DNA of 35,792 bases from Solirubrobacterales bacterium (GTDB lineage: Bacteria > Actinomycetota > Thermoleophilia > Solirubrobacterales > JACPNS01). The stretch lies in NCBI GenBank assembly GCA_016185345.1, contig JACPNS010000005.1, positions 176,425 through 212,216 on the forward strand, written 5' to 3'. The notes beneath the pieces were generated by a model, which was given only the letters and a program-made list of their open reading frames with translations, had not been told where the DNA came from and did no database searches. Positions 8,516-35,311 of this stretch are shown piece by piece. Numbering within the stretch: position 1 is the stretch's first letter; every line of letters begins with the position of its first letter. Made by a program: the position numbers and the translations under genes.

Positions 8516-8516
8516 G

Positions 8517-8960: not shown

Positions 8961-8982
8961 TTCTCACTTTCAAGATCTGAAC

Positions 8983-9021
8983 AAAAAAGAGCCCCGGCGT
9001 CATGCCGGGGCTCTTTTTTTT
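8983..9021. terminator. Bidirectional intrinsic terminator after fdxA
   Basis: GAGCCCCGGC at 8989-8998 pairs perfectly with GCCGGGGCTC at 9004-9013 around the loop GTCAT. A run of eight T's follows and a run of six A's precedes. It can therefore terminate fdxA on the plus strand and also transcripts arriving from the minus-strand gene at 9142-9693. Confidence 0.95.
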
Positions 9022-9030
9022 GTCTTGGTC

Positions 9031-9091
9031 CTCTTGGGGAGAGGGATCTTGCTTTGGGGAGGATGCTGATCTCTTGGGGGAGTGATCAGCA
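9031..9091. repeat. Three 20-bp-spaced TTGGGG repeats with an inverted repeat
   Basis: CTCTTGGGGA (9031), GCTTTGGGGA (9051) and CTCTTGGGGG (9071) start exactly 20 bases apart. The last copy lies in the loop of a perfect eight-base inverted repeat, TGCTGATC at 9064-9071 and GATCAGCA at 9084-9091. There is no T-run on either side, so this is not a standard terminator. It lies between fdxA and the convergent H1-tail gene. Confidence 0.5.
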
Positions 9092-9141
9092 AATTGTCAC
9101 GCGGGCCGAGCCGCCATGACGGGGGTTAGCTTGGGAATGGT

Positions 9142-9693: not shown

Positions 9694-9809
9694 TAGCGCC
9701 GTCCCTCCATAAGTTTGTTAGAAGTAACAATGGTCAGAACTATATACGTACCCGCCGTCACGTCGTTACACACATCCCGAGAAAAACTCCGAAATAGCGG
9801 TTTCAAGCC

Positions 9810-9864
9810 AAAAAGTCCTACAAGGTTGCGCCTTTGTCGTACGACAAAGACGCAACCTTGTAGG
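9810..9864 (-). terminator. Very long hairpin terminator of the IMPase-family gene
   Basis: A 48-base inverted repeat at 9817-9864 has a single unmatched position (9831 C against 9850 A). In the minus-strand RNA this position is G-U and the whole 24-base-pair stem can pair. Five U's follow in the minus-strand RNA (A's at 9810-9814). It begins 14 bases after the stop codon of the gene at 9879-10727, so it is that gene's terminator. The core at 9832-9849 is an 18-base perfect palindrome. Confidence 0.85.
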
Positions 9865-9878
9865 GAAAAAGCGCTTAC

Positions 9879-10727
9879 TTACGCGGTGAGGGCGTTGATC
9901 AGGAACTTGGCGCGGGTTTCGTCCCGGCCAGCGGCGACGGGCTTGTAGGGCTCAAGCGTGAGCGGTGCCACGAGAGCCTCGTCGTTGCCGAAGATCACCG
10001 TTGCGCCTGCTTCGCGAGCAATCAACTGCGCAGCAGCTGCATCAACCGACCGACACGCCCGAAGCGAAAGCATCCCGTCATACCTAGCCGCCGCCACCTG
10101 GCACAAAGTCAAAGCGATCGACCCGATCGAGCGGATGCGCTGAACGTTGCCGTCGAACGCTCCGAGCAGACCGGGCGTCAGAAACACGGGCTTTGTCGAT
10201 TCCAGTCCAACCACTTCAAGTTCATTGCCGGTCTCTGAGTGGTCAAGCCTGCGCCCGTCAACCGTCGCGCCGCCACCCTTGATCGCGATCCATTCCTCGT
10301 TGGCGCCGAAGTCGTAGACGTAGCCGTAGACAACGTCGTCCATGGTCTCGCCCGTTGCAACGGCAACTGAAAGGCTCCACGACTTTGCGACCCGCTTGGC
10401 GTTCAGCGAGCCGTCGATCGGATCGACGACGACCTTCACGGCCTTCGAACCAAAGTCGACCTCGCCGCGCTCTTCAGATAGCGCGTAGAAGTCGGCGCCG
10501 GAATCGGAAAGCGCCTTCAGCTCGGCGAATACCGCGTCTTCTGCCACCTCGTCGATGATCAGCGTGAAGTCACCGCCAGCGCCGTGACCGCTCCCAACCT
10601 TGCGCGACTCGTAGGTCGGGTACTTCACGAAGTCGGCCTTGATCCTCTCGACCATGCGCCGACAAGAGCCGGTCCAATCGGTCGTGAGCGCCAGGTTGTT
10701 TGTTTCGCTGAGGGACTCAGTTGCCAT
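9879..10727 (-). CDS. Inositol monophosphatase-family phosphatase
   Basis: 282 residues, typical for the family. The lithium-sensitive metal-dependent phosphatase motifs are present. 'ALSEERGE' (E85/E86) binds metal. 'VVVDPIDGSLNAKR' holds the D-P-I-D-G-S signature (D102, D105) that carries two Mg ions and the attacking water. 'ACRSVDAAAAQLIAREAGA' near 225 supplies the third metal Asp and the substrate-side helix. It probably hydrolyses a sugar or inositol phosphate; inositol-1-phosphate, fructose-1,6-bisphosphate, histidinol phosphate and PAP are all handled by members, and the sequence does not decide. It is divergent from the helicase-nuclease gene with only 23 bases between start codons. 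The terminator is the hairpin at 9810-9864. Confidence 0.88.
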   Translation of the reverse strand: MATESLSETNNLALTTDWTGSCRRMVERIKADFVKYPTYESRKVGSGHGAGGDFTLIIDEVAEDAVFAELKALSDSGADFYALSEERGEVDFGSKAVKVVVDPIDGSLNAKRVAKSWSLSVAVATGETMDDVVYGYVYDFGANEEWIAIKGGGATVDGRRLDHSETGNELEVVGLESTKPVFLTPGLLGAFDGNVQRIRSIGSIALTLCQVAAARYDGMLSLRACRSVDAAAAQLIAREAGATVIFGNDEALVAPLTLEPYKPVAAGRDETRAKFLINALTA

Positions 10728-10737
10728 AACGGCACCG

Positions 10738-10744
10738 TATCCTA
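10738..10744. promoter_or_regulatory. Candidate bidirectional -10 element
   Basis: TATCCTA lies in the 23-base gap between divergent genes. On the plus strand TATCCT (10738-10743) ends seven bases before the GTG start of the helicase, which would give a leaderless mRNA. On the minus strand TAGGAT (10744 to 10739) would start transcription about five bases before the phosphatase ATG. Both fit the actinobacterial T-A-N-N-N-T rule. Confidence 0.5.
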
Positions 10745-10750
10745 GAGATC

Positions 10751-13700
10751 GTGAGCGAATCCCCCGAGCTGACCACGTTGCCGCTTCCCGAGCAGGTTCT
10801 TGAAGGTCTCAACGACCCGCAGAAGGCCGCCGTGACGCACCTCGGAGGCCCGCTTCTGATCGTCGCGGGCGCTGGTTCGGGCAAGACGCGGACGCTCACG
10901 CGCAGGTTTGAGTGGCTCGTCGCCCAGGGCGTTCCGGCCGACCGCATCCTCGCGCTGACCTACACGAACGACGCCGCCGCAGAGCTGGCAGAGCGAATCG
11001 AACTGGCGCTCGGCGAGCTGCCCGAGGAGATTCACGCCACCACCTTCCACGCGCTCTGCATGGAAACCCTGAAAGACGAGTCGGCAGCGGCCGGACTCAA
11101 TCCCTTCTTCACGACCGCCACCGCACCCGACCGGGTCGCGCTGATGCTCGCACGGATAAATGAGCTGACCTTCGATCAGATCTCATTGCGCGGCAACCCG
11201 GCGGCTGCGCTCGGCGACCTGATGTCGTTGATCGATCGCCTGAAGGAAGAATGCATCTCGCCGGAGGAGCTGGCTGGCTACGCGAGTGCAGCGCTGGCCG
11301 ACGCAGTCGAGCCCGAGGATCGCGAGAAGGCTCTGCTGATGGCCGAACAGGCCGCGCTCTACGCCCAGCACGAAAAGTTCCTCCACGACGCAGCGGCGCT
11401 CGACTTCGGCGGCATGCAGTTCGAGCTGTACAAGCTGCTTTCGACCAACGAAGCGGTGCGCTCTCGCGTCGCCCGCCGCTACGAGCACGTGCTCGTCGAC
11501 GAGTTCCAGGACACCTCGTACGTGCAATTGGAGATCCTGAAGCTGCTGACACAGGACCACAGAAACCTCGCTGCCGTCGGCGACGACGACCAGTCGATCT
11601 ACCGCTTCCGCGGCGCGTCGCCTCGCAGCATCCTCGACTTCCAGCGCCGCTTCGGCGAGGCCACCCGCATCGAACTCGAGCTGAACTACCGTTCCGCGTC
11701 GCCGATCATCGACGCCGCGCGCGCGATCGTGCGGATGATCCCAGACGACCGGCGCGTGCCCAAAAACCTGACTGCCGCGATGGACAAGCCCGGCGAGGTG
11801 CTCTTCTGGCACGCCGAGTCCGAGATCGCAGAAGCGCAGGCAATTGTCACGGAGGTCGAGCGACTGATCGCCGACGCCCGAGTGCAACCGCGCGACATCT
11901 GCGTGCTCGCGCACAAGCGCGCGCACGTTCGCGTGCTGGCCGATCGACTCGGCGCCCACGACATCCCGTTCACGCTAAGCACCAAGGACTTCTTCCAGCG
12001 CTCCGAGATCCGCGTACCGCTCTCGTGGCTGAAGGTGCTCGGCAATCCGACCCTGAACGAAGACGCCTGGCGCATGCTCACCGCGCACCCGATCAACCTC
12101 GACAGCGCCGACTACGCGGGCTTGATGAAGTGGATGAAGCGCGACAAGCAACCGCACGTCGTTGAGGCGATGCGCGGCGCGGCGCGCTCGAAGCAGTTCT
12201 CGCCCGAGACGCTCGACAAGATCCGCCAGTTCATCACGACCTTCGACACGTTGAACGCGCAGTTCAATGAGCTCGGCCCCGGCGAGTTCACGATCCGGCT
12301 GATCAACGAGATTGCGATCAAGGGATCGGTGCTGCTGGAAAGCGGCAAGGACGCGCCAGACCGGCTCGCCAACCTCTCAAAGTTCCAGCGCCTCGCCGAG
12401 GACTACGAGGGGCGCAGCCCGCAGGCCAACGCCCGCGACTTCGCCAACTACATCACAGGCATGGCCGAGGCTGGATTCGATGAATCGAGCGAGTCGGCAG
12501 AGCGCGATCCGAACGCGGTGCGCCTGATGACTGCGCACGGCTCGAAGGGCCTTGAGTTTGAGTACGTCTTCGTGCCCGGCATGGTCTCTGGTCGTTGGCC
12601 AGGAAGGCGCAGCGGTGACAAGGGTGTCCCGCCCGCCCTGCTGCGCGATCCGATGCCGCCGCTCCCGGGCAAGAATCCCGAGACCGCCGCCTACCACGAA
12701 GAGACGCGCCGCCTTGCCCACGTGGCAATGACCCGCGCGCGCACCCAGCTGGTGCTGAGCTGGTTCGACTCCGACGCCCGCGGCCACAAGGTCAGCGAGT
12801 TCTACTCCGAGGCGATGCTCGCCGTTGACGGCAAGGAGCAGGAGTTCCCTGAGCGCGACTTTGAAACTGCGGACTTCGTCTACGCCGAAATGGAATCACT
12901 GCGCGGCGAGCTGATGGGCTCGATCGCCCAGGCCGGCGCGACGCTCGGCGAGATGCGCCTCGACGCGCATTCAGAGACGCCCGCAGATTTCGCCCGCTTT
13001 GCCGAACTGTTGAAGCTGAGCGCGCTGGTGCACAGGCTGCGCCACGGCCAGACGATCACCGACGCGCTTCCAGAGATCAACTCGATGCTGGTCGGGCAGA
13101 TGTCGCCCGCGCAGCGCGCCGCATACGAATCCTCCGAACTCGACGACCGCCTGCGCATCAGCGAGGAGCGCGTCGAGCAACTCGCCGGAACGATGGGCTC
13201 GATCACGCCGCAGCTCACCAACTACTTGCCGACGATCAACAACCGCCTGCGCCTCTCGGCCTCTGCGATCGGCAGCTATCAGCGCTGCCCCAAGCAGTAC
13301 GAGTACGAGAACGTGATGAAGATCCCGACGCCGGATCAAAGCCACCTGCGTCTCGGCATCACGGTCCACAATGTTCTGGAGCGATTCCACAAGGACCTCG
13401 ACGAACCGCTCGAGCCCGACGACGCCCGCAAGCGACTCGAGTACCTGCTTGAGCAATCCGTCATCACCGGCGGCTGGGGTCGCACAGACGACGACAAGCA
13501 GCTGCTCGATCGCGCTCGCAAGATGCTTGATCGCTACGCCGACAGCGAGTTCGCAAGGCCCGAAGGACCGGTCAAGACTGAAGCCGGCTTCTCACTCAAA
13601 CTCCCGCCGACCAAGCTGATGGAAACGACGCCCGTCGGCGGCAAGATCCTCGACGGAATCCAGATCAACGGAAAGATCGACCGCATCGACACGATGGCCG

Positions 13701-14038
13701 ACGGCAGCCAGCGCGTGGTTGATTACAAGACGGGCAACGACAAGAAGGGCGCGGTAGCACTGCGCAACCAGGTCGCCAAAGAGATTCAGCTGGCGATCTA
13801 CAAGTACGCCGGTGCCGAGGAACTCGGGATCGACGCGCAGGGTCTTGTCTACTACTTCCTTGAGAACGCCCAGCCCGTGATCGAGGCCGAGGCAACCGAA
13901 GAACACGTCGCCGAAGTCCGCGCGACGATCGACGAAGTAGCCGACAAGATCATCGCGCTCGACTTCACGCCAGACCCCGAGTACAACAAGTGCCGCAGCT
14001 GCGCCTTCCGGCACGTCTGCCCGGCTACTGAGGCCTAG
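10751..14038 (+). CDS. UvrD-like helicase with C-terminal RecB-type Fe-S nuclease
   Basis: 1095 residues from a GTG start. All SF1A helicase motifs are visible: the Q-motif 'LNDPQKAAV' (20-28), Walker A 'GAGSGKT' (40-46), Walker B 'LVDEFQDTSY', 'VGDDDQSIYRFRGAS', 'ELNYRSASP', 'LMTAHGSKGLEFEYVF' and 'VAMTRAR'. The C-terminal quarter is a PD-(D/E)xK nuclease with D977 and the pair D991/K993 in 'VVDYKTGND'. Four cysteines, C846 plus C1081, C1084 and C1090, match the Fe-S cluster of AddB, AdnAB and Cas4. This architecture is that of AdnA/AdnB and related recombination motors, which resect double-strand breaks. No partner subunit gene is adjacent. The gene is convergent with PAC2, overlapping by four bases. 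Confidence 0.92.
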   Translation: MSESPELTTLPLPEQVLEGLNDPQKAAVTHLGGPLLIVAGAGSGKTRTLTRRFEWLVAQGVPADRILALTYTNDAAAELAERIELALGELPEEIHATTFHALCMETLKDESAAAGLNPFFTTATAPDRVALMLARINELTFDQISLRGNPAAALGDLMSLIDRLKEECISPEELAGYASAALADAVEPEDREKALLMAEQAALYAQHEKFLHDAAALDFGGMQFELYKLLSTNEAVRSRVARRYEHVLVDEFQDTSYVQLEILKLLTQDHRNLAAVGDDDQSIYRFRGASPRSILDFQRRFGEATRIELELNYRSASPIIDAARAIVRMIPDDRRVPKNLTAAMDKPGEVLFWHAESEIAEAQAIVTEVERLIADARVQPRDICVLAHKRAHVRVLADRLGAHDIPFTLSTKDFFQRSEIRVPLSWLKVLGNPTLNEDAWRMLTAHPINLDSADYAGLMKWMKRDKQPHVVEAMRGAARSKQFSPETLDKIRQFITTFDTLNAQFNELGPGEFTIRLINEIAIKGSVLLESGKDAPDRLANLSKFQRLAEDYEGRSPQANARDFANYITGMAEAGFDESSESAERDPNAVRLMTAHGSKGLEFEYVFVPGMVSGRWPGRRSGDKGVPPALLRDPMPPLPGKNPETAAYHEETRRLAHVAMTRARTQLVLSWFDSDARGHKVSEFYSEAMLAVDGKEQEFPERDFETADFVYAEMESLRGELMGSIAQAGATLGEMRLDAHSETPADFARFAELLKLSALVHRLRHGQTITDALPEINSMLVGQMSPAQRAAYESSELDDRLRISEERVEQLAGTMGSITPQLTNYLPTINNRLRLSASAIGSYQRCPKQYEYENVMKIPTPDQSHLRLGITVHNVLERFHKDLDEPLEPDDARKRLEYLLEQSVITGGWGRTDDDKQLLDRARKMLDRYADSEFARPEGPVKTEAGFSLKLPPTKLMETTPVGGKILDGIQINGKIDRIDTMADGSQRVVDYKTGNDKKGAVALRNQVAKEIQLAIYKYAGAEELGIDAQGLVYYFLENAQPVIEAEATEEHVAEVRATIDEVADKIIALDFTPDPEYNKCRSCAFRHVCPATEA

Positions 14039-14919
14039 CTACTGCCCTCTTGGGTGCGCAGGTACCGCTGGATCTCTTTGGCGATCGCGTCGCCTGAGGG
14101 GATCGGGTTCGTGGACTCGTCATCCGCATCCGCATCGGCGTTCTCTTCAAGCGTCTTGACGTATCCAGAGATCTCATCGTCCTGCGCGACGGCCGCGGAG
14201 ACCTGCTCTTTGAAGCGGTCGGCTGCCGACTCGAGTTCTGCCGCATCAACGAGCGCGCCGGTGATGCCTTCGAACGCGCGGACGAGCGCGAGCGCTGCAG
14301 GCGGGTTCGGCGTCGCGGCAACGTAGTGCGGCACCGAGGCCCAGAGACTCACGGTCTTCAGGCCGGCTTTGGCGCAGTGGTGCTGGAGCACACCAGTGAT
14401 CCCGGTCGGCCCTTCGTAGTTGGCAGTGCGGAATCCCAGCCCGTGGGTCATCTCTTCTTCGGGTGAGATCGCGTTGATCGCAGACGAGCGCGTGTGCGGC
14501 ACATCCGCCAGCAGCGAGCCCAGCATCACGACGGTCGTGACCTCGCACTCCTGGGCGACGGTGATGATCGCGTCGCAAAAGGTCTGCCAGTGCATCGACG
14601 GCTCTTCGCCTTCAAGCAAAAGCACGCCGCCTTCAAGGCCACCGACCTCTGCCTGGTAGAAAACATTGCGCGGCCACTCGACGAAGCGCACGTCACCGTC
14701 AATAACGCTGATCTGCGGCCGATGGGACTGAAAGTCGAAGAAGTGCTCCGGGTCGATCTCGGCGATCTTGCGGCGCTCGCCGGTCTGGCCGAGGTAGCTG
14801 ACGGCTGCGCTCGCGGCGTTACCTGCGTCGTTCCAGCCCTGGAAGCTGACGACCAGTATCGGTCCTCGCGGCGTGTCCGCGTCGGACCAGACGATGCTTT
14901 CGGCTGCGCCCTCTCTCAT
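14035..14919 (-). CDS. PAC2-family (proteasome assembly chaperone-like) protein
   Basis: 294 residues. 'ILVVSFQGWNDAGNAASAAVSYL' is the diagnostic N-terminal PAC2 motif, with the G-W-x-D-A-G-x-A-A core. 'EPSMHWQTFCDAI' and 'VVMLGSLLADVPHTR' follow the family pattern, and 'GPTGITGVL' continues it. The tail (about 245-294) is acidic and low in complexity. In eukaryotes and archaea PAC2 homologs help assemble proteasomes. Actinobacteria carry both PAC2 proteins and 20S proteasomes, but direct chaperone function has not been settled for bacterial members. The gene shares its last four bases with the helicase-nuclease gene. Confidence 0.85.
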   Translation of the reverse strand: MREGAAESIVWSDADTPRGPILVVSFQGWNDAGNAASAAVSYLGQTGERRKIAEIDPEHFFDFQSHRPQISVIDGDVRFVEWPRNVFYQAEVGGLEGGVLLLEGEEPSMHWQTFCDAIITVAQECEVTTVVMLGSLLADVPHTRSSAINAISPEEEMTHGLGFRTANYEGPTGITGVLQHHCAKAGLKTVSLWASVPHYVAATPNPPAALALVRAFEGITGALVDAAELESAADRFKEQVSAAVAQDDEISGYVKTLEENADADADDESTNPIPSGDAIAKEIQRYLRTQEGSS

Positions 14920-14989
14920 TCACAACAACGCTACTCGGTCTGGCCCGTTTCGGCAATCGGTCACGGACATTTGCTGATGCTCTGCGGCA

Positions 14990-14995
14990 TAGACT
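14990..14995 (+). promoter_or_regulatory. Candidate -10 of a leaderless promoter
   Basis: TAGACT ends six bases before the GTG at 15002, so the predicted transcription start coincides with the start codon. There is no Shine-Dalgarno sequence before this GTG, which supports a leaderless message. Confidence 0.45.
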
Positions 14996-15001
14996 GGGGC
15001 C

Positions 15002-15859
15002 GTGACCACGATCGCCGAGTTGCTCCCGGACACCGAAGTTGATGGCGTCTTCGCCTGCACCAAAAAACAGAAACAGACGGCCCGCAACGGCTCGCCGTAT
15101 CTGATGGTCGAACTTCGCGACGCCTCGGGGAAGATCGGCGCTCGCGCCTTCAAAGACGCGAGCTTCCTGGACGCCCAGTTCGATCGCGGAGACATCGTCC
15201 ACGTGGCCGGCCGCGTCGAGTCCTTTCAGGATCAGCGCCAGATCAACTTGCGCGCAATCCGCCGCGCCGAGCCGGGCGAGGCCGGAGACCCGTCCGACTT
15301 TCTCCCCAGCGCATACCGCGACGTCGACGAGCTCGAGGGCTTCTTTGAGCACCTGATCACCGAGGTCCATCACCCCGGCTACGCGAAGTTGCTGAACACA
15401 ATGCTCGCGGACCGCGAACTGCGCGATGCGCTGCGCACGGCGCCCTGCACGATCGGCGGTCACCACGCCTACCTCGGCGGCCTGCTCGAGCACACTGTTG
15501 CCGTCGCGACGCTTGCCAAGGAGACTTGGGATCTGCACCGCCGGCTCGACAGCGACCTGCTGATCACCGCGGCGCTGCTGCACGACATCGGCAAGACCCG
15601 CGAGTTCGTCTACGGCGCCGAGATCACGCAGAGCGAGGGCGGCAGGCTGCTCGGCCACCTCGAGCTCGGCGTGCAGCTCATCCGCGAGTACTCGATCAAG
15701 TCCGGTGGGCTCGATCGGTCCAGCGAACTAAAACTTTTGAGCTGCGTCCTGAGTCACCACGGTCCGGCCGGGGGCGCCTCGACATTCGCCAACGCAGAAG
15801 CATTGGCGCTCTACAGAATCAACGCACTGGATGCAGGAATCAAGGGGTATCTCGAATGA
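15002..15859 (+). CDS. YhaM-like 3'-5' exoribonuclease (OB fold plus HD domain)
   Basis: 285 residues from GTG. Residues 8-95 form an OB-fold (D-G-V-F-A-C-T-K-K-Q ... 'RGDIVHVAGRVESFQDQRQI') as in YhaM. Residues about 130-270 are an HD domain: 'GGHHAYLGGLLEHTVAVA' provides two His-containing helices, 'AALLHDIGKTREF' is the H-D metal pair, and 'LSHHG' gives further His. YhaM trims RNA from the 3' end, and single-stranded DNA in some assays, with divalent metal. It is best known from Firmicutes. The downstream SDR start codon overlaps its stop (ATGA), so the two are translationally coupled. It is divergent from PAC2 across 82 bases. Confidence 0.85.
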   Translation: MTTIAELLPDTEVDGVFACTKKQKQTARNGSPYLMVELRDASGKIGARAFKDASFLDAQFDRGDIVHVAGRVESFQDQRQINLRAIRRAEPGEAGDPSDFLPSAYRDVDELEGFFEHLITEVHHPGYAKLLNTMLADRELRDALRTAPCTIGGHHAYLGGLLEHTVAVATLAKETWDLHRRLDSDLLITAALLHDIGKTREFVYGAEITQSEGGRLLGHLELGVQLIREYSIKSGGLDRSSELKLLSCVLSHHGPAGGASTFANAEALALYRINALDAGIKGYLE

Positions 15860-16707
15860 GCAGTGTTCTGATCACAGGTGCGGGGCGCGGCATTGGGCGC
15901 GCGACTTCGCTTCGCCTGGCCAAGGCTGGGTGGGAAGTACATGCCGGTGTTCGTAAGCCCGAGGACGGTGCGGCGCTGGTTGAAGAGCTGGGAGATGGCG
16001 CAGCTGGCCCGATCGTCCCTGTCACGCTCGACGTGACTGACGATGCATCGATCGCGGCCGCAGCAGAATCGCTTCCCGCGCAACTCGACGCTGTGGTCAA
16101 CAACGCCGGGATCGTGGTCGACGGTCCAGTCGAATCCCTGACGCGCGAACGCCTGACCGAGCAGTTTGATGTGAACGTCGCCGGCGCCGTTGCCGTCACG
16201 CGCGCAGTACTGCCGAAGATCCGCGCCGCCAAGGGCCGCGTGGTCTTCGTCTCTTCAGTCAGCGGACGCATCTCCACTCCGTGGACCGGCGCCTACAACT
16301 CCTCCAAGTTTGCCGTCGAGGGCATGGCCGACGCGCTGCGCCTGGAGCTGCGGCCGTGGAAGATCAAGGTCTCGCTCGTCGAGCCCGCCAACACCCAGAC
16401 CGACATGTGGGGCGGCGCGCAGGACATGTTTGACGAAGGGGTGAAGGCACTCACTCCGGACGAGCACGCGCTCTACAACGGCCACATGAAGGGCATGCGT
16501 CGCACGCTCGGCCTCATGCAGAAGACTGCTGCGCCGGTGGACGGCGTCGCCGGAGCGATCGAGTCAGCGCTCACTGCGAAGCGGCCACGGGCTCGGTATG
16601 TCGTCGGGATCCCAGCGAAGGTGCAAGTCATCGCGGCGGGCCTCACGCCGCGACCGATCCTCGACTTCGTGCTCGCCAAGGCGACTGGCGTGCCGCGCAA
16701 GGCCTAA
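15856..16707 (+). CDS. Classical short-chain dehydrogenase/reductase
   Basis: 283 residues from the ATG that overlaps the previous stop. 'VLITGAGRGIGRATSLRLA' is the cofactor-binding T-G-x-x-x-G-I-G motif. 'VNNAGIV' is the N-N-A-G element, and 'VFVSSVSGRISTPWTGAYNSSKFA' gives the catalytic Ser and the Y-x-x-x-K pair. 'LVEPANTQTDMW' is the post-catalytic P-x-x-x-x-T loop. The usual NAD(P)H-dependent oxidoreductase activity is therefore likely; the substrate cannot be told. The C-terminal 60 residues include 'RARYVVGIPAKVQVI', as in human 17-beta-HSD1- and RDH-like SDRs. It ends convergently with the TauE/SafE half-gene, sharing CTAA. Confidence 0.88.
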   Translation: MSSVLITGAGRGIGRATSLRLAKAGWEVHAGVRKPEDGAALVEELGDGAAGPIVPVTLDVTDDASIAAAAESLPAQLDAVVNNAGIVVDGPVESLTRERLTEQFDVNVAGAVAVTRAVLPKIRAAKGRVVFVSSVSGRISTPWTGAYNSSKFAVEGMADALRLELRPWKIKVSLVEPANTQTDMWGGAQDMFDEGVKALTPDEHALYNGHMKGMRRTLGLMQKTAAPVDGVAGAIESALTAKRPRARYVVGIPAKVQVIAAGLTPRPILDFVLAKATGVPRKA

Positions 16708-20227: not shown

Positions 20228-20674
20228 CTAGGGACCCGTCGACCCGCCAGGCGAACCGCCAGCGGGCGGTGTCGATGTGCCTGCGGTCGGTGGCGTTACT
20301 GAACCAGTACCAGCGGTCGGTACGGCGGTTCCAGCAGTAGCGCCACCGGCGGTGGCGCCTGTGGCGCCGCCGATCTTCGCTGCGCCTTGCGGCGCAAACA
20401 CGTACGAACCGTCCTGCAGGCGGTAGACGGTGCCGACCGCCGTACCTTGACCCTGCGCGGGTTTGCCGCCGCTGGGCTGCCCGGGGATCGGCGTGCCCGC
20501 TCCAGAGGGTCCCGCAACCAGGCCAACCACGCCGGCCGAGGAAAGCGCAGCGAGGAGGAGGCCTACTGCGAGTACCAGCGAGAGGTCAAAGAGGTTGACA
20601 AGCCCCTCAAGCGGATCGCCTGCACGATCAATCCGGCGCCCTGAGACGCTTCCGGGTGTCGGCGTGACCTTCAT
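20228..20674 (-). CDS. DUF2149 protein, ExbD/TolR/MotB-like channel partner
   Basis: 148 residues, last gene of the ExbB operon. A short basic N-terminus leads to 'GDPLEGLVNLFDLSLVLAVGLLLAAL', one transmembrane helix. D30 lies where ExbD D25, TolR D23 and MotB D32 carry protons (compare P-F-I-D-V-M-L-V-L). The extracytoplasmic part has 'GTVYRLQDGSYVF', which fits the DUF2149 pattern (G-x-x-Y-R-L-x-D-G). It ends in about 60 residues of Gly/Ala/Thr/Pro low complexity, which is unusual. ExbD-like proteins form dimers inside ExbB pentamers and transmit proton-driven motion. The start is three bases after the ExbB stop. The family assignment rests on recognised sequence style, not a search. Confidence 0.7.
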   Translation of the reverse strand: MKVTPTPGSVSGRRIDRAGDPLEGLVNLFDLSLVLAVGLLLAALSSAGVVGLVAGPSGAGTPIPGQPSGGKPAQGQGTAVGTVYRLQDGSYVFAPQGAAKIGGATGATAGGATAGTAVPTAGTGSVTPPTAGTSTPPAGGSPGGSTGP

Positions 20675-20677
20675 CGA

Positions 20678-21736
20678 CTACTTGTCCCGGTCGGCAGGCG
20701 GCTCGAAAGGCGGAGCGGCGGCCGGGATCGTCGTAGCTGGCGGGGGTGGAGGCGGGAATGCCGGCCCTGCCGGAGCGGCCGGGGTCTTCGGGGACTTCTT
20801 TTTGAGGCCGAACTTCTTCTTCGGAGCCTCGGGTGCGAGCGGCGGCGGATATGCCGGAGGCGCTGCGCCCGGCTGTGCAGGCGCAGCGGGGGCGGGGGCA
20901 GGGGCAGGGGCCGAAGCCGGTGCCGGAGGCGCTGCCGGAGCGGCGGGAATAGTGCTACCTGCGGGTGCTGAGACTGGCTGGCTGGCAGGATGGACCACGG
21001 TCTCGTCCGGTGAAATCCGGGTACTCGCAGTCGGCTGGTCGGTCGCGCTGTGGTGCGAAGGCGAGGCCGCCGAAGGCTGCGCAACGGTCGCGGGCAGGAT
21101 CGTCACGGCGTCGCCGCGGAGCTCACGCAGGAACTCGAGGTCGGCGAGGTCCTTGGTGTAGAAGCGCTCGCGGATCAGGGCGATCGTGAATGCGACGAGT
21201 CCGACGAGCACACCGACGACGGTGACCGAGAATGCAGTCTGCAGCTCGTCGGCGAGAACGTTGGGCTGGCCCTTGCCGAGCGCAGCAAGCGCAGGTGAGA
21301 GCGGGATCAACGTTCCCATAAGACCAAGAGCCGGGCCGGCGCGAACCAGAAGGCGAACTCGGTCAAGACGCTTCGAGACGTACAGGTCGTACTCGATGAC
21401 TGCGCGTTGCGCGTCGATCCCATTGGCTGCGAACAGCGTGCCGACGGCGGCGCTCTGAAGGTTGTCGTTGTAGGAGTAGGACTTCAGCGTTGCCTGGGCA
21501 CCAGCGCTGTCGCCAGCACGTGCCTGCGCCATCGCCTGACCAGCCACCTGGCTGAACTTCGCGTTGGGCAACTGGCTGCGCTTCCACGCCTCCACTGCGA
21601 GGCGGCCGAGCTCGTATGCCACGAGCAGCAGCGCCAGCATCGCGGTGATCAGCACTGGATAGCGCAGCGCCTCGGCCACGTCAGCAACGCTCTGCGTAAT
21701 TGTGTCCCCGACCGAAGCCGCGTAAATCAATGTCAC
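20678..21736 (-). CDS. MotA/TolQ/ExbB proton-channel family protein
   Basis: 352 residues. The first 215 are a channel subunit with three membrane helices: about 27-45 (PVLITAMLALLLVAYELG), about 133-152 with 'GPALGLMGTLIPLSPALAAL', and about 168-190 'AFSVTVVGVLVGLVAFTIALI'. The G-x-x-G-x-x-G-T-x-x-P stretch in helix 2 is diagnostic, and the Thr residues facing the pore are retained. The C-terminal 135 residues are Pro/Ala-rich with a Lys patch (K-K-K-F-G-L-K-K-K); in the usual topology they would be cytoplasmic. It should form the proton-conducting ring around the DUF2149 protein. Its start overlaps the stop of the surface-protein gene by four bases, so translation is coupled. Confidence 0.85.
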   Translation of the reverse strand: MTLIYAASVGDTITQSVADVAEALRYPVLITAMLALLLVAYELGRLAVEAWKRSQLPNAKFSQVAGQAMAQARAGDSAGAQATLKSYSYNDNLQSAAVGTLFAANGIDAQRAVIEYDLYVSKRLDRVRLLVRAGPALGLMGTLIPLSPALAALGKGQPNVLADELQTAFSVTVVGVLVGLVAFTIALIRERFYTKDLADLEFLRELRGDAVTILPATVAQPSAASPSHHSATDQPTASTRISPDETVVHPASQPVSAPAGSTIPAAPAAPPAPASAPAPAPAPAAPAQPGAAPPAYPPPLAPEAPKKKFGLKKKSPKTPAAPAGPAFPPPPPPATTIPAAAPPFEPPADRDK

Positions 21737-23088
21737 GGTTTAACCCACTCCCTTACTGCCCCAGAAAAAGTAAACGCGAACAGTAACGCGAGCAAATACA
21801 CCCAGGCGTCGTCCACGTCATCGACCGGTTGAAAAATTGAATTGATTTGATCGGCGACCGCCGGGGGTAACGCCGTGATCGCAGCGGCGCCGCCTGATTC
21901 TCCTGCCGGCGCAGCCGTCGGAGACGAGAGCAGCACGCCGGTGACTGTCCTCAGTCCGCCGGTACCTGACACGTTCTGCGCAACATTCGTGATCGCTGTG
22001 CTGTCGATCGTTGACGTGGAGGTTGACTCGGTCGGCGCGGTCGTTGTCGGCGCTGAGGGCTCCGCCACGGCGGATTGCGATGAGCTGGGCGGCGCTGGGG
22101 TAGTAGAGGTGTTCGGGAGCGTGTTCACCGCTCCGCCGCCGAGCGCTCCGGTGCCGGCTCCGGTGCCTGTGCCTGTTCCAGCTCCAGTGTTGTTTCCGGT
22201 CGTCGGCGTCGGGTCTGGATACGGATTCTTGGTTGCGCCCTTGGCCTTCTTGCGCGAGGTGTACTCCACTGAACCGGCCCCGGTGGAACCGCTGCCACGC
22301 TCAGTCACAACCACGCTGACGGCGTGTTGAGCGGTTCCGCTGGTGGCGTTGTTGGTAACCATCGAGGGGCCGGTCTGACCAGCGACAGGCTTGCCCTTCG
22401 CGTCGTAGGTGTACCACTGGTACTCCTTGGCGCCCGAGCCACCGCCACTGACCTTGGCGGAGAACGTGTACTCGCCGTTCTTACGCTTCTTTGAAGAGAT
22501 CCTGACGGTCATGATCTTCGCGCCAGGCGCTCCGGGGATGATCTTCAGGCGCGGTCCCTTGGTGGAAAACGGGACGAAGCTCGATTCGCTCAGGGCCGTC
22601 GAAAGGTCGGGCTGACCGGGAACCACAGCCGGCGTGTCAAACGGACCACGGCCGGGGGCCTTGCCACCGCCGAGGATGATCGGTGGACGCTCGGTGTCGG
22701 CCTGGTTCAAGGGGACGAGCGAGATCAAACCGTCGTTGGTGGTGCCGTAGCGGATCTTCACGAACTGGACGTTGTCGGTGTTCACGCCACCGGCCTTCAG
22801 GAACTCGATCAATGGCACGCCGCTGAGGCCCACCTTTGTTCCCTTCTTCTGGCCGCGCAGGATCACGTTGTAATCCACGTTGTTGATCTCGGGCAGACCC
22901 TTGAGATCGACGGTTGCGGGCGCGCCATCCTGTTCGGCTCCGGCGCTGTCGAATACATCGACTTTGGCGGGCAAGTCCGCTTCGGCGCCGGTCGGTCGAA
23001 ACATCACGACAAGCAGGCTCAGCACGAGTCCTGAAATCAGCACGACATGCGAGTAGTTGAGTTGGCGTAGTGAGCTTGCGCGGTTCAT
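21733..23088 (-). CDS. Membrane-anchored surface protein with sulfite-oxidase-like and PKD-like domains
   Basis: 451 residues. Residues 14-32 are a hydrophobic N-terminal segment (signal or anchor). Residues about 45-190 resemble the Moco-binding fold of the sulfite oxidase family: 'VDLKGLPEINNVDY', 'LSGVPLIEFLKAGGVNTDNV', 'NDGLISLVPLNQAD' and 'TKGPRLKIIPG' correspond in order to its typical strands. There is no Cys in the whole protein, so the catalytic Mo ligand is absent. About 190-285 is PKD-like ('EYTFSAKVSGGG', 'YQWYTYDAKGKPVAG'). A 130-residue Gly/Thr/Ser/Pro linker reaches a C-terminal transmembrane helix ('WVYLLALLFAFTF'). The protein is probably extracytoplasmic, anchored at both ends, and coupled to the ExbB gene. 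The domain calls are from pattern only and moderate. Confidence 0.5.
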   Translation of the reverse strand: MNRASSLRQLNYSHVVLISGLVLSLLVVMFRPTGAEADLPAKVDVFDSAGAEQDGAPATVDLKGLPEINNVDYNVILRGQKKGTKVGLSGVPLIEFLKAGGVNTDNVQFVKIRYGTTNDGLISLVPLNQADTERPPIILGGGKAPGRGPFDTPAVVPGQPDLSTALSESSFVPFSTKGPRLKIIPGAPGAKIMTVRISSKKRKNGEYTFSAKVSGGGSGAKEYQWYTYDAKGKPVAGQTGPSMVTNNATSGTAQHAVSVVVTERGSGSTGAGSVEYTSRKKAKGATKNPYPDPTPTTGNNTGAGTGTGTGAGTGALGGGAVNTLPNTSTTPAPPSSSQSAVAEPSAPTTTAPTESTSTSTIDSTAITNVAQNVSGTGGLRTVTGVLLSSPTAAPAGESGGAAAITALPPAVADQINSIFQPVDDVDDAWVYLLALLFAFTFSGAVREWVKP

Positions 23089-23144
23089 GATCTCTGGTCA
23101 CGTGGCAGGGCGGTCAGCGGCTGATCTCCACACAGAAGAAACAG

Positions 23145-23197
23145 ATTAACGCGCGAATTGGATGAGGCCAAGGGCTTGGAGCGGGCATTAACGCGCG
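23145..23197. repeat. Two 11-base direct repeats, 42 bases apart
   Basis: ATTAACGCGCG occurs at 23145-23155 and 23187-23197, start-to-start distance 42 bases, about four helical turns. Both lie in the 133-base gap between the toroid gene and the surface-protein gene of the ExbB operon. They could be paired sites for a regulator. No intrinsic terminator or promoter is obvious in this gap. Confidence 0.4.
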
Positions 23198-23221
23198 CAC
23201 AGTCTGAAGTAAAGCGGTGAT

Positions 23222-24175
23222 TCAGACGCAGCTTTTGCCCGCTTTGGAGCGCGCGACAACTGGATAATGCTGTCCGCTCAGCGCCAGGACTGCGTTTGTC
23301 GTCGAAATCGTCGGGTAACTGCCAGCCGCAGATGGCGAAGAGCGGAACGATCCGCCCTTCTTCTGCAGGGCGCGAAGAGCGCGCTTGGCCTTCGAGGTGC
23401 CGGCGCCGATCGTGTCGGCCGCGCGGATCACATATGAAGTGGCGTCGGCCTGCGTCTCGCCGTTGGGCGTGTCGGGGTTGTAGCCGCCGTCGATATTGCG
23501 CTGGAAGGTGATCCACTTGTAGGCGGACCGCAAGCCGCTCTCCTTCCTGGAAACTCCGGCCGACCGCAGTGCCTCGATCATCAGGGCGCTTGATTCCACA
23601 TCGTCGCCGGAGTTCTTGGACATTGCGAAGTTCCAGCCGTACTGGCCGCGGCGCGATTTGGCAAAGCCGATCGCCTTGGACGGAATCTTCTGGTAAGCCG
23701 CCTTCAGGGCGAGCAGCGCGAGTGCCTGGTCAAAGGAAGTCTTTCCATACTGACCGCTCGAGCTGTTGTAGAAGGATTTCAGGATGTTGTAGAGATCCGA
23801 CTCTTCGTTCTTGGGTCCAAAGCAACGCGGGTTGCGGCCTGTCGCTGCGGCAGCAAGAATCAACTTCGCGGTCGCGCCTGCGGTGATCGCGTAGCTCGAG
23901 GTGTCTTCCTCGACCGAGCTGAGGATGCCGTCCCGCGTCGAGCTCGGGACGCTCACGCCGATCTTTTTCGCGGCGGCAAGTGCGGAGAGCGTGTCGGCTT
24001 TGAATCCCGTGCCGCCCGACGGAAACTGAGAAAGCCCGGACTTGCGGATCCAGCTGACGCCGTTCTTCACGGCTCCCTTGTTGGTGCTGGCGGCCTGCGC
24101 GATCGCGGCGCCGCCGAGGAACGCAGCCAGCGATGCCAGCGCGACGAGTACATGTGTCTTGGAAAAGTTCTTCAT
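23222..24175 (-). CDS. Secreted alpha/alpha-toroid protein (transcobalamin/prenyltransferase-repeat type)
   Basis: 317 residues. The N-terminal 28 residues are a Sec signal ('VLVALASLAAFLGGAAIAQAA'-like core, cut near A-Q-A-A). The rest is a series of helix-pair repeats with the Q-x-x-x-G-G/W-style turns of alpha/alpha toroids: 'RRGQYGWNFAMS', 'FQRNIDGGYNPDT', 'LQKKGGSFRSSP', each followed by 'ETQADATSYVIRAADTIG'-type D-x-x-S-x-x-x-x-x-A-L helices. This is the fold of squalene cyclases, prenyltransferases and the cobalamin-binding domain of intrinsic factor and transcobalamin. No DxDD or prenyltransferase zinc motif is present, so a binding role is likelier than catalysis. Two cysteines (C118, C316) may bridge. 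A GGAG site lies before the ATG. It is 42 bases downstream of ileS. Confidence 0.75.
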   Translation of the reverse strand: MKNFSKTHVLVALASLAAFLGGAAIAQAASTNKGAVKNGVSWIRKSGLSQFPSGGTGFKADTLSALAAAKKIGVSVPSSTRDGILSSVEEDTSSYAITAGATAKLILAAAATGRNPRCFGPKNEESDLYNILKSFYNSSSGQYGKTSFDQALALLALKAAYQKIPSKAIGFAKSRRGQYGWNFAMSKNSGDDVESSALMIEALRSAGVSRKESGLRSAYKWITFQRNIDGGYNPDTPNGETQADATSYVIRAADTIGAGTSKAKRALRALQKKGGSFRSSPSAAGSYPTISTTNAVLALSGQHYPVVARSKAGKSCV

Positions 24176-31573: not shown

Positions 31574-33321
31574 CTATTTGCAGACCTTGAACTTCACGGT
31601 TTTCTTGGAGATCGTGCCGTCATCGTAAGTTGCCTCCAGCTCGATCCTGTGCGTCTTCTTCGGCTTGAGCTTGAGCTTCTTGATCTTCAGTTCGAAGCGG
31701 AACGGAGTCTTCTTGACCGTCCCCTTCCTCTTGCCGTCGATCTTCAGCACGACGTTCCTCACGCGGACGCGTGACTGGTAGTTCGGCCGGATCGGGAGCT
31801 TGTTCCTCAGGCACTTCTTGTACTTCTTCAGCGTCTGGATGCCGAAGCAGTTCGCGAGATTCGTCGGCGTCGTGACGGACTTCGTCGCGCCGGTGTAGGC
31901 GAAGAAGTTGTAAGTGAAGTTCGGCAGTGCCGGCGCCTTGTTGTAGGTCGGGCAGGCGAGCGAGCGCAAGAGGCCCTGCGGTCCGCCATCGAGACGGAAG
32001 ATCAGTTTGCTGAATCCAACCTGCGGGATGTTTTCGAAGGTCGTTTCGATCTGGGGTAGACATCGCCGGTCAGGCCAGTGCGAATCAGCGGCGTCTCGAT
32101 CTTCACCGACCCGACGCGCGCGGACGTGGTGCAAGAATCTGCGTTGAAGTCGCCGATCGCGCACGTGCGTCCGAGCTGCTGGACGTCAACATTTATCGCA
32201 GCGGGAATTGTCGTGACGATCTTTTTCGGGCTCGTGGAAGCCTGACCATCGCCCTGCACTCCGGGGTTCGTGATCGTGAAGTCGAATGCCGGGGCGAAGT
32301 CACGCGCCGGCGTGTCGATGGCGACCGCTCCATCGATCGGGAAGGGCACCGCGGCTGCATTCGAGCAGTCGGGGTCGACCGTCGAGGTTCCGGCCGAGAC
32401 GTATTCCGGCGCTCCGCCGAAGGGATTGCTGTCCCAGTTGCTCGTGCCAAACCACGCGGTGGTCCAGGCCCGCGTCTGCCAGGGCTGACAGCTGCTGGAG
32501 TTGGTCATGAAGTTGCCGCCGTTGGCGAGCTTGCCGAAAAGCTTGATGCGCATGCGCTCCAGGCGGAAGTCCTGCCACCCGTTCATATTGAAGTTGTAGA
32601 TCTCCTGAGGAACCGGGTCGAGCGTCACCGTGCGCAGTCGCAGGTCCTCGCTGGTCACGGGATTCACATTCAGTCGCAAACGAACATCGCCGATGTTGAC
32701 CGGACCCTTTGCACGGATGCCGATCTGCGCGGGAACTTCGGGGTCTGTCTTGAGCAACGAGACCTGGGTGAATCCGGAAGAAGGACCGCTGTATCCGGTG
32801 CGCGTCGAGGGGCCGAGCGGGGTGATGGCGAGAGTCCCCGGACTTTCGGCCGTACCTGTGACGAGCGAATACTGCAGCCAGACCTCGCCGACGATCGAGG
32901 ATTGCGGGCAGTCGCCAGCCTGAAAGACCGAAGGATCGCATCGCTCTTCGTACGGAATTGCGTTTGGATTTCCGATCAGTCCCGGAGGGCTCTCAACGAC
33001 GATGTCCTTGACTGTCTCGCGGTAATCGGTGCCGGCCGGGTAGGTGTCTGGATCTTCGCGACCGCCGCTGACCAAGCCAGTCGCTCCGTATTCGAACGTC
33101 ATGTCGACGTTGTAGTCGGCATGCGCAGCGAGCAACGGAGCGCCCGTCTCGCCGGTTGTCGAAATCACGTCCCAGCCGCCGACTTTGGCAATATCGGTCT
33201 TGCCCTGCGTGAACGAGGATGTGACGGTCGGCAAAATGTTTGCCCCCGCACCAGTAACTGCGAAGGCGCTCACCGCCACGGCCAAACTTGCAACGAGAAT
33301 GCTTCGGTACTTCACCGCCAC
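31574..33321 (-). pseudogene. Secreted family protein, copy 1, frameshifted by a short deletion
   Basis: From GTG at 33321 (GGGAGGA ribosome-binding site) runs a 439-codon frame with a signal peptide. It then loses frame after 'GLTGDVY'; the homologous C-terminal part ('QIETTFENIPQVGFSKLIF' onward) continues in another frame down to 31574. Compared with intact copy 2, about 37 residues are missing at the junction near 32055 and the net loss is not a multiple of three. Otherwise both parts are well conserved, including 'YPAGTDYRETVKDIVVESPP', 'VTSEDLRLRTVTLDP' and the C-terminal Lys-rich Ig-like domain. The junction lies beside a 141-base segment that is repeated at the window end, so an assembly artefact must be excluded before calling it a true pseudogene. 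Confidence 0.75.
31914..32054. repeat. 141-base exact repeat, copy A
   Basis: Identical base for base to 35652-35792, the last bases of the window. The first mismatch on the left is 31913 (A) against 35651 (G). The flanking coding sequence on the left is clearly diverged between the two paralogs, so identity is confined to this block. Confidence 0.97.
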
Positions 33322-33409
33322 GTTTCAGTCCTCCCAAACTTGAAACAAGAATTCATCGGATGCTCGACTGCCCGCGCATCCGACTCTGAGCTCAGTGCCC
33401 AGCAGCTTA

Positions 33410-33440
33410 CCTATCGGCGAACAGAGTTGTTCGTTATAGG
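33410..33440. repeat. Inverted repeat between copies 2 and 1
   Basis: CCTAT/ATAGG and CGAACA/TGTTCG pair around a four-base loop, with a small internal loop. It begins six bases after the copy 2 stop on the minus strand. There is no U-run, so it may be a weak terminator or an mRNA 3' end structure. The rest of the 124-base gap holds a second, seven-base inverted repeat (CGGATGC/GCATCCG) near 33358-33383. Confidence 0.5.
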
Positions 33441-33445
33441 GGCAA

Positions 33446-35311
33446 TCAGCACTTTTTGAACGTCGCGGTCTTTCTCGAGACCGTGCCGTCGTCATACGTT
33501 GCCGTGAGCTCGAAGCTGTGCCTTCCCCGCTTGAGCTTCTTTATCGGCACGTCAAAACGAAACGGGCGCTTTTTGGCCGAACCCTTTCGCCTCTTGTCGA
33601 TCTTGAGCGAGACGATCTTCAGGCGCGAGCGCGACTGATAATTGGGGTGGATCGGGAGCTTCTTGTACAGGCAGCGCGGATACTTCTTGAGTTCTTGGAT
33701 GCCGAAACAGTTCTTCATGTTCAGCGGCATGCTGCTCGACGCTGTCGCACCACTCCACGCGGTGAAGCTGTAGGTGAAGTTCGGTAGTGCCGGCGCCTTG
33801 TTGTAGGTCGGGCAGGCGAGCGAGCGGAGCAATCCGTTGGTTCCCCCGTCGAGATGGAAGATCAGCTTGCTGAAACCCACCTGCGGGATATCGTCGAAGG
33901 TCGTCTCGATCTGATTGTTCCTTGCCCCGATGTATCGGTTCGACCCGAGCTGCGTAAAGGTGATGGCACCACGCACGCGCAGGCCGAGATCCGGAAGTCC
34001 TGACGTGGCGTTGCGCTTGACGAGATAGACATCACCGGTCAGGCCTGCCTTGATCAGAGGCGTTTCGATCTGCACCGATCCGACTCGCGTGCTTGCGGCG
34101 CAGGCGTCCGCGTTGAAATCGGCGAGCTGACAGGTACGGCCGAGCTGTTGCACGTCCACGTTGAGCGAGGCGGGGATCGTCGTGACGATCTTTCTGGGGC
34201 TGGTTGAGACGTTGTCATCGAGCGCCTGGACACCCGGGTTGGAGATCGTGAAGTCAAAGGCCGGCGAAGTGTCCCGGTCGGGGCTGCTGATCGAGACGTT
34301 GCCGCTCGCCGGGAACGGGACGGACGCTGCATTCGAGCAGTCGGGCAAGATCGTCGAGCGCTCGGGGCCGACGTATGGCGTGGGGCCGGCGCCGGGTAGC
34401 GGCGGCGGCGTGGCATTGGTGTTCGAGTAGGTGGCGTTGGACCAAGCGGTCGAGGTCCAGGGTTGGCAGCTCGTCGGGCTGGTCATGAAGGCATTGCCGT
34501 TTGCGAGCTTGCCGTAGAGCTTCAGCTTCATGCGCTCGAGGCGGTAGTCGCGGGCGACGGTGATGATGTTGTCGTTCTCGTCCACTTCACGAACCGAGAC
34601 CTTGTTCGGGATGCCGCCAACTGTGATCGCGCGCAGGCGCAAGTCTTCACTGGTGACTGGATTGATTTCGAGCTTGATGCGCAGCGGCAGATAGCCGATC
34701 GGACCGCGCACGTAGAGACCGATCTGGGCCGGGACCTCGGGGTCGGTCTTGAGCAGTGACACCGTCGTGTAGCCGGAGTCAGTGTTCACGTAGCCGGTCC
34801 GCGTCTTCGGCCCAACGGCGAGAAGCGACAGCGCGTTCGGCTGACCGATCGACGCGAAGAAGTCCATGATCGAGTACTTCACCCAGATCTCACCAACGGT
34901 CGCGCTCTCCGGGCATGTGCCGGTCTGGAACGTCGCCTGGTCACAGCGCTCAGCAAACGGAACTGCGTTCGGATTCCCAAGCAGCCCGGGCGGGATGTCC
35001 ACCACGACGTTTTTGGCGGTCTCGCGGTAGTCGGTGCCCGCCGGGTACGTCGCTGGATCCTCAACGCCGGCCGAGGTCAGGCCAGTCGCGCCGTAGTTGA
35101 AGCGCATGTCTACGTTGAAGTCAGCGTGTCCGCCGAGCCTTGTCGCCGGTATCTCTTGCGACGAATCAATTCCGTCCGGCAGGACGCTGGCGTTGTAGTC
35201 CGTCCTGCCGTTGGTGAGCGATGTGCTCAGCGAAGGGATGACGTCGGCGGAGGCGCCGCTGGTCAGCGCCAGACACGCAGCTATGGCCAGGAACGGAACG
35301 AGCTTCTTCAA
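33446..35311 (-). CDS. Large secreted protein, intact array copy 2
   Basis: 621 residues from TTG at 35311, directly after the stop of copy 3 (TAGTTG). A signal peptide ends near 'TSGASA-DV'. The mature protein has no known catalytic motif. Its conserved parts are 'YPAGTDYRETAKNVVVDIPPG', paired Cys ('ERCDQATFQTGTCPESA', 'DCSNAAS', 'GRTCQLADFNADAC', 'LACPTY', 'NCFG', 'RCLY'), 'INPVTSEDLRLRAITV' and a Lys-rich C-terminal Ig-like domain ending 'ATYDDGTVSRKTATFKKC'. About eleven Cys suggest disulfides in an exported protein. I recall similar secreted hypotheticals only from Solirubrobacterales-type genomes. A surface adhesin or wall-associated structural role is possible, but none is shown. No LPxTG or C-terminal anchor is seen. 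Confidence 0.8.
   Translation of the reverse strand: MKKLVPFLAIAACLALTSGASADVIPSLSTSLTNGRTDYNASVLPDGIDSSQEIPATRLGGHADFNVDMRFNYGATGLTSAGVEDPATYPAGTDYRETAKNVVVDIPPGLLGNPNAVPFAERCDQATFQTGTCPESATVGEIWVKYSIMDFFASIGQPNALSLLAVGPKTRTGYVNTDSGYTTVSLLKTDPEVPAQIGLYVRGPIGYLPLRIKLEINPVTSEDLRLRAITVGGIPNKVSVREVDENDNIITVARDYRLERMKLKLYGKLANGNAFMTSPTSCQPWTSTAWSNATYSNTNATPPPLPGAGPTPYVGPERSTILPDCSNAASVPFPASGNVSISSPDRDTSPAFDFTISNPGVQALDDNVSTSPRKIVTTIPASLNVDVQQLGRTCQLADFNADACAASTRVGSVQIETPLIKAGLTGDVYLVKRNATSGLPDLGLRVRGAITFTQLGSNRYIGARNNQIETTFDDIPQVGFSKLIFHLDGGTNGLLRSLACPTYNKAPALPNFTYSFTAWSGATASSSMPLNMKNCFGIQELKKYPRCLYKKLPIHPNYQSRSRLKIVSLKIDKRRKGSAKKRPFRFDVPIKKLKRGRHSFELTATYDDGTVSRKTATFKKC

What the first reader, a model, noticed from the sequence alone, without database searches (positions are those of the whole stretch)
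20228..24175. ExbB/DUF2149 proton-channel operon with toroid and sulfite-oxidase-like surface proteins
Four minus-strand genes lie in order: secreted alpha/alpha-toroid protein, doubly anchored surface protein, MotA/TolQ/ExbB channel, DUF2149 protein with an ExbD-like Asp (D30). The last three are coupled by overlap or three-base spacing. ExbB/ExbD motors normally serve TonB across an outer membrane, while this window looks like a monoderm actinobacterium. The toroid fold is shared with the cobalamin-binding domain of transcobalamin and intrinsic factor. I infer a proton-driven surface apparatus, perhaps for capture or uptake of a corrinoid or another ligand. The genes are recognised; the system and its ligand are inference.
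Basis: partly seen in the sequence, partly recalled or inferred. Interest (0 to 1): 0.85.

Follow-up and report, generated by a model that had tools for sequence, protein, structure and literature searches.

The report
Proton-motor gene cluster for B12 capture
A bacterium that seems to lack an outer membrane carries a small proton-driven motor next to surface proteins that most likely help feed vitamin B12 to its importer; the same motor and tether are reused for heme and tungstate elsewhere, so a TonB-like machine may exist where none was expected.

Summary
The four minus-strand genes are real, in the stated order, and syntenic in all five genomes of the genus. The toroid fold, the ExbB channel and DUF2149 with Asp30 hold up. 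The "sulfite-oxidase-like" label does not: gene 2 belongs to a PKD-domain surface family with an unassigned N-terminal domain, a disordered linker and a C-terminal membrane helix. The corrinoid guess is now well supported. The closest toroids outside the genus sit in cobalamin-riboswitch ECF-transporter operons. The window's own genus has that same riboswitch operon with the toroid missing. In the ExbB tree the window genes are sister to ExbBs of cobalamin-riboswitch clusters (100/98). ExbB-DUF2149 is a general pair: in Actinomycetota it also goes with heme and tungstate importers, and in other phyla with the CobN/HmuS dechelatase. Its partner proteins (toroid, PKD protein, CobN) share a C-terminal module, [VI]xGxx[LVIM] plus spacer plus membrane helix (29 of 33 families versus 2.7 expected). 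I propose a PMF motor that pulls or cycles a tethered surface protein to hand cobalamin to the ECF importer, a TonB-like job in a monoderm. Transport, ligand and energy coupling are untested.

The parts
23222..24175 (-). Secreted (alpha/alpha)6 toroid protein, 317 aa, with Cys118 (NPRCFG) and Cys316
   Evidence: AF2 pLDDT 87.9; SHC Z 25.9, intrinsic factor Z 20.9; homologous over 261 columns to toroids of cobalamin-riboswitch clusters; no DxDD cyclase motif
21733..23088 (-). Gene 2: doubly anchored surface protein (PKD family), candidate tether/transducer
   Evidence: Family hits PKD in 17/21 members; model with N-helix 7-29, beta domain 42-185, Ig/PKD domain 190-282, disordered linker, C-helix 428-449
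21928..21945 (-). VTGVLL motif of the shared C-terminal module (residues 382-387)
   Evidence: [VI]xGxx[LVIM] before a C-terminal membrane helix in 29/33 client families, 2.7 expected
21742..21807 (-). C-terminal membrane helix ending GAVRE
   Evidence: Model helix 428-449; G443 invariant and E447 nearly invariant in the family alignment
20678..21736 (-). ExbB-type proton channel with a Pro/Ala-rich cytoplasmic tail seen only in this genus type
   Evidence: PF01618 E 3.4e-8; near-invariant GPALGLMGTLIP core in 13 relatives; tree; tail
20228..20674 (-). DUF2149 protein, ExbD-like single-pass partner
   Evidence: PF09919 E 3.1e-10; DUF2149 lies directly downstream of ExbB in 96/101 loci
20585..20587 (-). 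Codon of Asp30 of DUF2149, in the membrane helix

Best explanation
The cluster is the surface and motor half of a cobalamin (corrinoid) uptake system. The other half is the riboswitch-controlled operon elsewhere in the genome (DUF4430-like a, DUF4430 b, CbiQ, double ATPase, ECF S component). Proposed working: the secreted toroid, with the DUF4430 proteins as the separate beta-domain half of a transcobalamin-like clamp, binds cobalamin outside the membrane. ExbB and DUF2149 form a proton-driven motor of the 5:2 type. Gene 2 is anchored by its C-terminal helix next to ExbB, its VxGxLL strand docks on the extracytoplasmic part of DUF2149, and its long linker and PKD domain reach to the toroid. 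Motor cycles pull or reorient that tethered protein, so that the toroid releases its ligand to the ECF importer. Shown: gene content, conservation, family kinship, riboswitch link, shared C-terminal module. Inferred: proton flow, docking of the motif, ligand, direction of force.
For: Cobalamin riboswitches at 9 of 15 distinct loci of the sister ExbB clade and at 0 of 13 heme, tungstate and metH-type loci. Nearest window-type toroids outside the genus end riboswitch-DUF4430-ECF operons, beside a PduO-type cobalamin adenosyltransferase. All five genus genomes have that operon without a toroid. ExbB tree: window clade sister to the riboswitch-type clade, 100/98. Toroid profile match 97.9%, E 3e-13. 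The shared C-terminal module is present in toroids that sit beside ExbB and absent from toroids of genomes that lack DUF2149. The genome has B12-binding proteins.
Against: No riboswitch in the window, even at a lax threshold, so co-regulation with the ECF operon is not shown. The sister genus runs toroid plus ECF with no DUF2149 at all, so the motor is not needed everywhere. The genome also encodes CbiC, so it probably makes cobalamin. The motif was found in the same data set in which it was counted. Deep ExbB branches are long (0.5-0.6), so the sister grouping could be an artefact despite its support. No ligand or proton data.
Confidence: 0.62

Rival explanations
1. The module is a general PMF motor that drives tethered metallocofactor-handling surface proteins, but the window copy serves another ligand (heme, a siderophore or a tungstate-like anion) rather than cobalamin.
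For: Related trios sit with heme FecCD/HtaA/HugZ-like genes in the same genome and with TupA/TupB-like importers in other Actinomycetota. The gene-2 family is shared with those clusters.
Against: Window ExbB and toroid both group with the cobalamin-riboswitch type, not with heme or tungstate types. No riboswitch at heme or tungstate loci.
Confidence: 0.18
2. The motor powers a chemical step on the bound tetrapyrrole (stripping or exchange of the axial ligand or metal), as it may for the CobN-like dechelatase HmuS, rather than mechanical delivery.
For: ExbB-DUF2149 stands near CobN in nine Gram-negative plasmid loci, and CobN there has a C-terminal membrane anchor, in six of nine with the same motif. 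HmuS works outside the cytoplasm and does not require ATP (PMC12583661).
Against: No CobN in the window cluster. The window toroid lacks the DxDD cyclase motif, and I found no other catalytic signature.
Confidence: 0.15
3. The cluster is a relic without a transport role; ExbB genes of monoderm actinobacteria are vestigial.
For: A 2025 survey calls Ton systems in monoderms, incomplete ones in Actinobacteria included, likely non-functional (PMC12204202). DUF2149 is rare in the phylum, 13 of 396 genomes.
Against: Intact and syntenic in 5/5 genomes at 48-69% toroid identity, with conserved motor residues. Gene couplings are tight. ExbB clades follow transporter type.
Confidence: 0.05

Closest known systems
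Bacteroidota Hmu system (HmuY-HmuR-HmuS-HmuT-HmuU-HmuV)
   Same: HmuU is an ExbB-type channel and HmuV a DUF2149 protein, adjacent as here; tetrapyrrole uptake; the membrane-anchored partner HmuS has a C-terminal helix (PMC10434189, PMC12583661, PMC13227078)
   Different: Works in diderms with a TonB-dependent receptor and a CobN-like dechelatase. The window has neither, but a toroid and a PKD-family surface protein.
TonB-ExbB-ExbD
   Same: ExbB-family channel, single-pass partner with a membrane Asp, a linker protein anchored next to the motor
   Different: The partner matches DUF2149 and not ExbD; no TonB_C and no Omp85 in relatives. The candidate transducer is anchored at its C-terminus, the reverse of TonB.
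ECF-type cobalamin importer with DUF4430/toroid proteins (Actinomycetota)
   Same: Toroid homologue, DUF4430 proteins, CbiQ, double ATPase and S component under a cobalamin riboswitch
   Different: In this genus the toroid is not in that operon but sits with gene 2, ExbB and DUF2149.
Transcobalamin and intrinsic factor
   Same: (alpha/alpha)6 toroid, Z 20.9 to intrinsic factor; a DUF4430 protein is encoded in the same genome
   Different: Separate bacterial proteins instead of one chain. Many unrelated toroids score as high or higher, so the fold alone says little.

Membership tests
ExbB-DUF2149 (HmuUV-type) motor | ExbB-family channel gene directly followed by a DUF2149 gene | tested here: met
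   Window and 96/101 related loci
ExbB-DUF2149 (HmuUV-type) motor | Conserved membrane Asp in the DUF2149 helix | tested here: met
   Asp30; D in 83 of 90 readable sequences
ExbB-DUF2149 (HmuUV-type) motor | Proton conduction and 5:2 stoichiometry | not testable with these tools
   No complex modelling or physiology available
Ton system (TonB-ExbB-ExbD) | TonB C-terminal domain protein | tested here: not met
   0 of 21 genomes, own included
Ton system (TonB-ExbB-ExbD) | ExbD/TolR family partner | tested here: not met
   The partner matches DUF2149 only
Ton system (TonB-ExbB-ExbD) | Outer membrane (Omp85/BamA) | tested here: not met
   0 of 21 genomes, own included
Hmu heme system | CobN/HmuS partner in the cluster | tested here: not met
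   The four genes have other identities and no CobN-sized unassigned ORF lies beside them
Riboswitch-controlled ECF cobalamin system | Toroid family member of such operons | tested here: met
   Nearest homologues outside the genus lie in three riboswitch operons
Riboswitch-controlled ECF cobalamin system | Cobalamin riboswitch at the cluster itself | tested here: not met
   None in the window; one at the ECF operon of the same genome
Transcobalamin / intrinsic factor | (alpha/alpha)6 toroid fold | tested here: met
Transcobalamin / intrinsic factor | DUF4430-type beta domain in the same chain | tested here: not met
   The window toroid has no such domain; DUF4430 E 5e-10 is on a separate protein, L137:7877-8770
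Transcobalamin / intrinsic factor | Binds cobalamin | not testable with these tools
   Needs a binding assay
Squalene-hopene / class II terpene cyclase | Catalytic DxDD motif | tested here: not met
   Absent from the window toroid
Sulfite oxidase fold (gene 2) | Oxidored_molyb domain | tested here: inconclusive
   No Pfam hit in 21 members; residues 42-185 were not searched as a separate model

The most novel reading that the evidence does not exclude
Single-membrane Actinomycetota have a TonB-like system of their own: an ExbB-DUF2149 proton motor that works on exchangeable surface proteins through a common C-terminal tether module ([VI]xGxx[LVIM], spacer, membrane helix ending in a Glu). It serves cobalamin, heme and tungstate importers, and the same tether links the motor to CobN-type dechelatases in diderms.
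Probability: 0.5. Interest if true: 0.9.

Novelty: new variant of a known kind. Interest (0 to 1): 0.78.

Why it matters
ExbB-family motors are best known for acting on an outer membrane or on flagella and similar machines. Intact, conserved ExbB-DUF2149 sets in monoderms, tied by gene order to cobalamin, heme and tungstate importers, challenge the view that they are vestigial there (PMC12204202). The shared C-terminal module gives a concrete handle on what HmuU and HmuV do in gut Bacteroidota, which recent papers leave open (PMC12583661, PMC13227078). It also adds a likely motor to bacterial cobalamin scavenging and a split, transcobalamin-like capture pair.

Tried and rejected
Sulfite-oxidase domain in gene 2: no Pfam, PDB sequence or fold support. 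Toroid as terpene cyclase: no DxDD. Flagellar or Tol identity of ExbB: only weak scores against MotA models, far below cut-off, and it sits in a family defined by a DUF2149 neighbour. Riboswitch in the window: none, also at E up to 1 for the cluster. Riboswitch at metH-neighbour loci: none. SCO2321, the nearest named toroid family: no useful paper. Literature on DUF2149 with ExbB: one paper, on hmu operons. Promoter and terminator scan of the cluster: nothing above chance.

Full report
Observation. Gene 2 and ExbB overlap by four bases, ExbB and DUF2149 are three bases apart, toroid and gene 2 are 133 apart; the toroid starts 42 bases after ileS. ExbB and DUF2149 pass Pfam cut-offs. The toroid hits cyclase and SCO2321 models only weakly by sequence, but AlphaFold2 gives a confident (alpha/alpha)6 toroid (pLDDT 87.9), close to squalene-hopene cyclase (Z 25.9) and, among many toroids, intrinsic factor (Z 20.9). 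The cyclase motif DxDD is missing. Gene 2 is not supported as sulfite-oxidase-like: none of 21 family members hits that domain and 17 hit PKD. Its model has an N-terminal helix, an unassigned beta domain (42-185), an Ig/PKD domain (190-282), about 120 disordered residues and a C-terminal membrane helix.

Conservation. The cluster is syntenic between ileS and trx in the genus: G002, G003, G004, the window, and the fifth genome, whose contig ends just after exbB. Toroid identities to the window of 48-69% show that this is not mere recent copying. The genus genomes lack Omp85 and TonB_C, as do 16 further genomes of the order, which fits a monoderm.

A second copy points to function. The same genome has another ExbB-DUF2149 pair on contig C18, divergent from an IsdE-like binding protein, FecCD permease and ATPase, an HtaA-domain protein, a PKD surface protein of the gene-2 family and a HugZ-like protein. 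That looks like a heme uptake locus, and it is kept in three more genus genomes. In Bacteroidota the pair is HmuU-HmuV of the heme operon (PMC10434189).

A wider family. A scan of 84,980 species genomes with the ExbB alignment gave 219 relatives, best 80 kept, all Actinomycetota by record title. DUF2149 follows ExbB in 96 of 101 loci. Neighbours fall into types: heme importers, TupA/TupB-like importers, ECF transporters with DUF4430 and toroid proteins, metH neighbours, and others (the metH label rests on the reading of the neighbour's N-terminus and length). In nine Gram-negative plasmid loci the pair is near CobN, in heme, corrinoid and nickel/hyp settings; CobN also accompanies it in some other actinobacteria of the phylum.

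The shared tether. The protein encoded just before ExbB (or elsewhere in the heme clusters) ends in the same way whatever its front half: a low-complexity linker, a short [VI]xGxx[LVIM] motif, 20-55 residues, and a membrane helix that in actinobacteria usually ends in a Glu. It is found on PKD proteins, on ECF-cluster toroids and on most CobN proteins. Counted over 33 families it is present in 29, against 2.7 expected from shuffled sequence; for the nine CobN alone, 6 against 0.3. Of 71 control ORFs in the loci with a hydrophobic C-terminus, 10 match, and at least two of these are in fact toroid clients. The pattern was drawn from the same data and widened once, so the probability given by the script should not be taken literally; the contrast is the point. 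Toroids from genomes without DUF2149 lack the module. I infer that the module is what the motor holds, in the way that TonB contacts ExbB and ExbD; this is analogy, not a result.

The ligand. Cobalamin riboswitches stand at 9 of 15 distinct loci of the ECF-type ExbB clade; among the six without, several are partial contigs or do not show the full cluster. They stand at none of six metH-type loci and none of seven heme or tungstate loci. The nearest toroids outside the genus, in three genomes of a sister genus, close an operon of riboswitch, DUF4430-like a, DUF4430 b, ECF genes and toroid, beside a PduO-type adenosyltransferase. All five genus genomes have this riboswitch operon but with no toroid in it; the toroid is in the window cluster. 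Window-type and ECF-type toroids align over 261 columns (97.9%, E 3e-13). In a 96-row ExbB tree the window clade is sister to the ECF clade with 100/98 support, apart from the heme, most tungstate, metH and CobN clades. Two proteins of the cluster thus point to cobalamin separately. The genome has three B12-binding domain proteins and CbiC, so it uses and probably makes cobalamin; uptake would be salvage.

Mechanism. Shown: parts, order, kinship, riboswitch link, shared module. Inferred: ExbB-DUF2149 turns proton flow into motion; gene 2 carries it outward; the toroid with DUF4430 proteins captures cobalamin and, when pulled or turned, releases it to the ECF S component. A chemical role, as for HmuS, is a real rival. 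That gene 2 is a direct partner of the toroid rests on gene order, and on the fact that in ECF-type clusters the tether is part of the toroid itself.

Limits. No riboswitch in the window, no expression data, no ligand data; the sister genus manages without the motor; long branches in the ExbB tree; few genomes for the window type; the beta domain of gene 2 is unexplained. Gene calls in the related loci come from a simple ORF script, not a trained gene finder.

Noticed in passing
L004 1617-8634 (own genome, contig C18:31616-38633): Second ExbB-DUF2149 pair in a heme-uptake-like locus with FecCD ABC genes, HtaA-domain protein, HugZ-like protein and a PKD surface protein.
   Followed up: yes
L083, L086, L098, L104, L126 and others: TupA/TupB-like ABC genes (checked by family model in L044) interleaved with a PKD client, ExbB and DUF2149 in Nocardioides, Frondihabitans, Galbitalea and Solirubrobacterales.
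   Followed up: partly
L035, L057-L060, L065, L066, L082, L085, L100: A well-supported ExbB-DUF2149 clade often placed beside a metH-like gene, with no tethered client next to it and no cobalamin riboswitch in the six loci tested; its partner is unknown.
   Followed up: partly
window 20678-21121: Window-type ExbBs carry a cytoplasmic tail of about 145 residues, rich in Pro and Ala, with a conserved KKKFG[LI][KR]KK patch; other ExbBs of the family lack it.
   Followed up: no
L062, L072, L081, L087, L089, L095, L110: A Thermoleophilia clade whose client ends in VTGxP or VSGxP plus a membrane helix without the final Glu; front domains unidentified.
   Followed up: no
L147 (Runella plasmid) 2267-16525: ExbB-DUF2149-CobN with a TonB-dependent receptor inside a hydrogenase maturation (hyp) gene set, suggesting a nickel role for a CobN-like protein.
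   Followed up: no
L040, L041, L038, L067, L106, L119, L093: Pairs of cobalamin riboswitches on opposite strands close together at one locus, the second apparently driving large secreted proteins away from the ECF operon.
   Followed up: no
window 32002-35311: Two adjacent minus-strand secreted proteins (439 and 621 aa) that look like paralogues from their N-termini.
   Followed up: no
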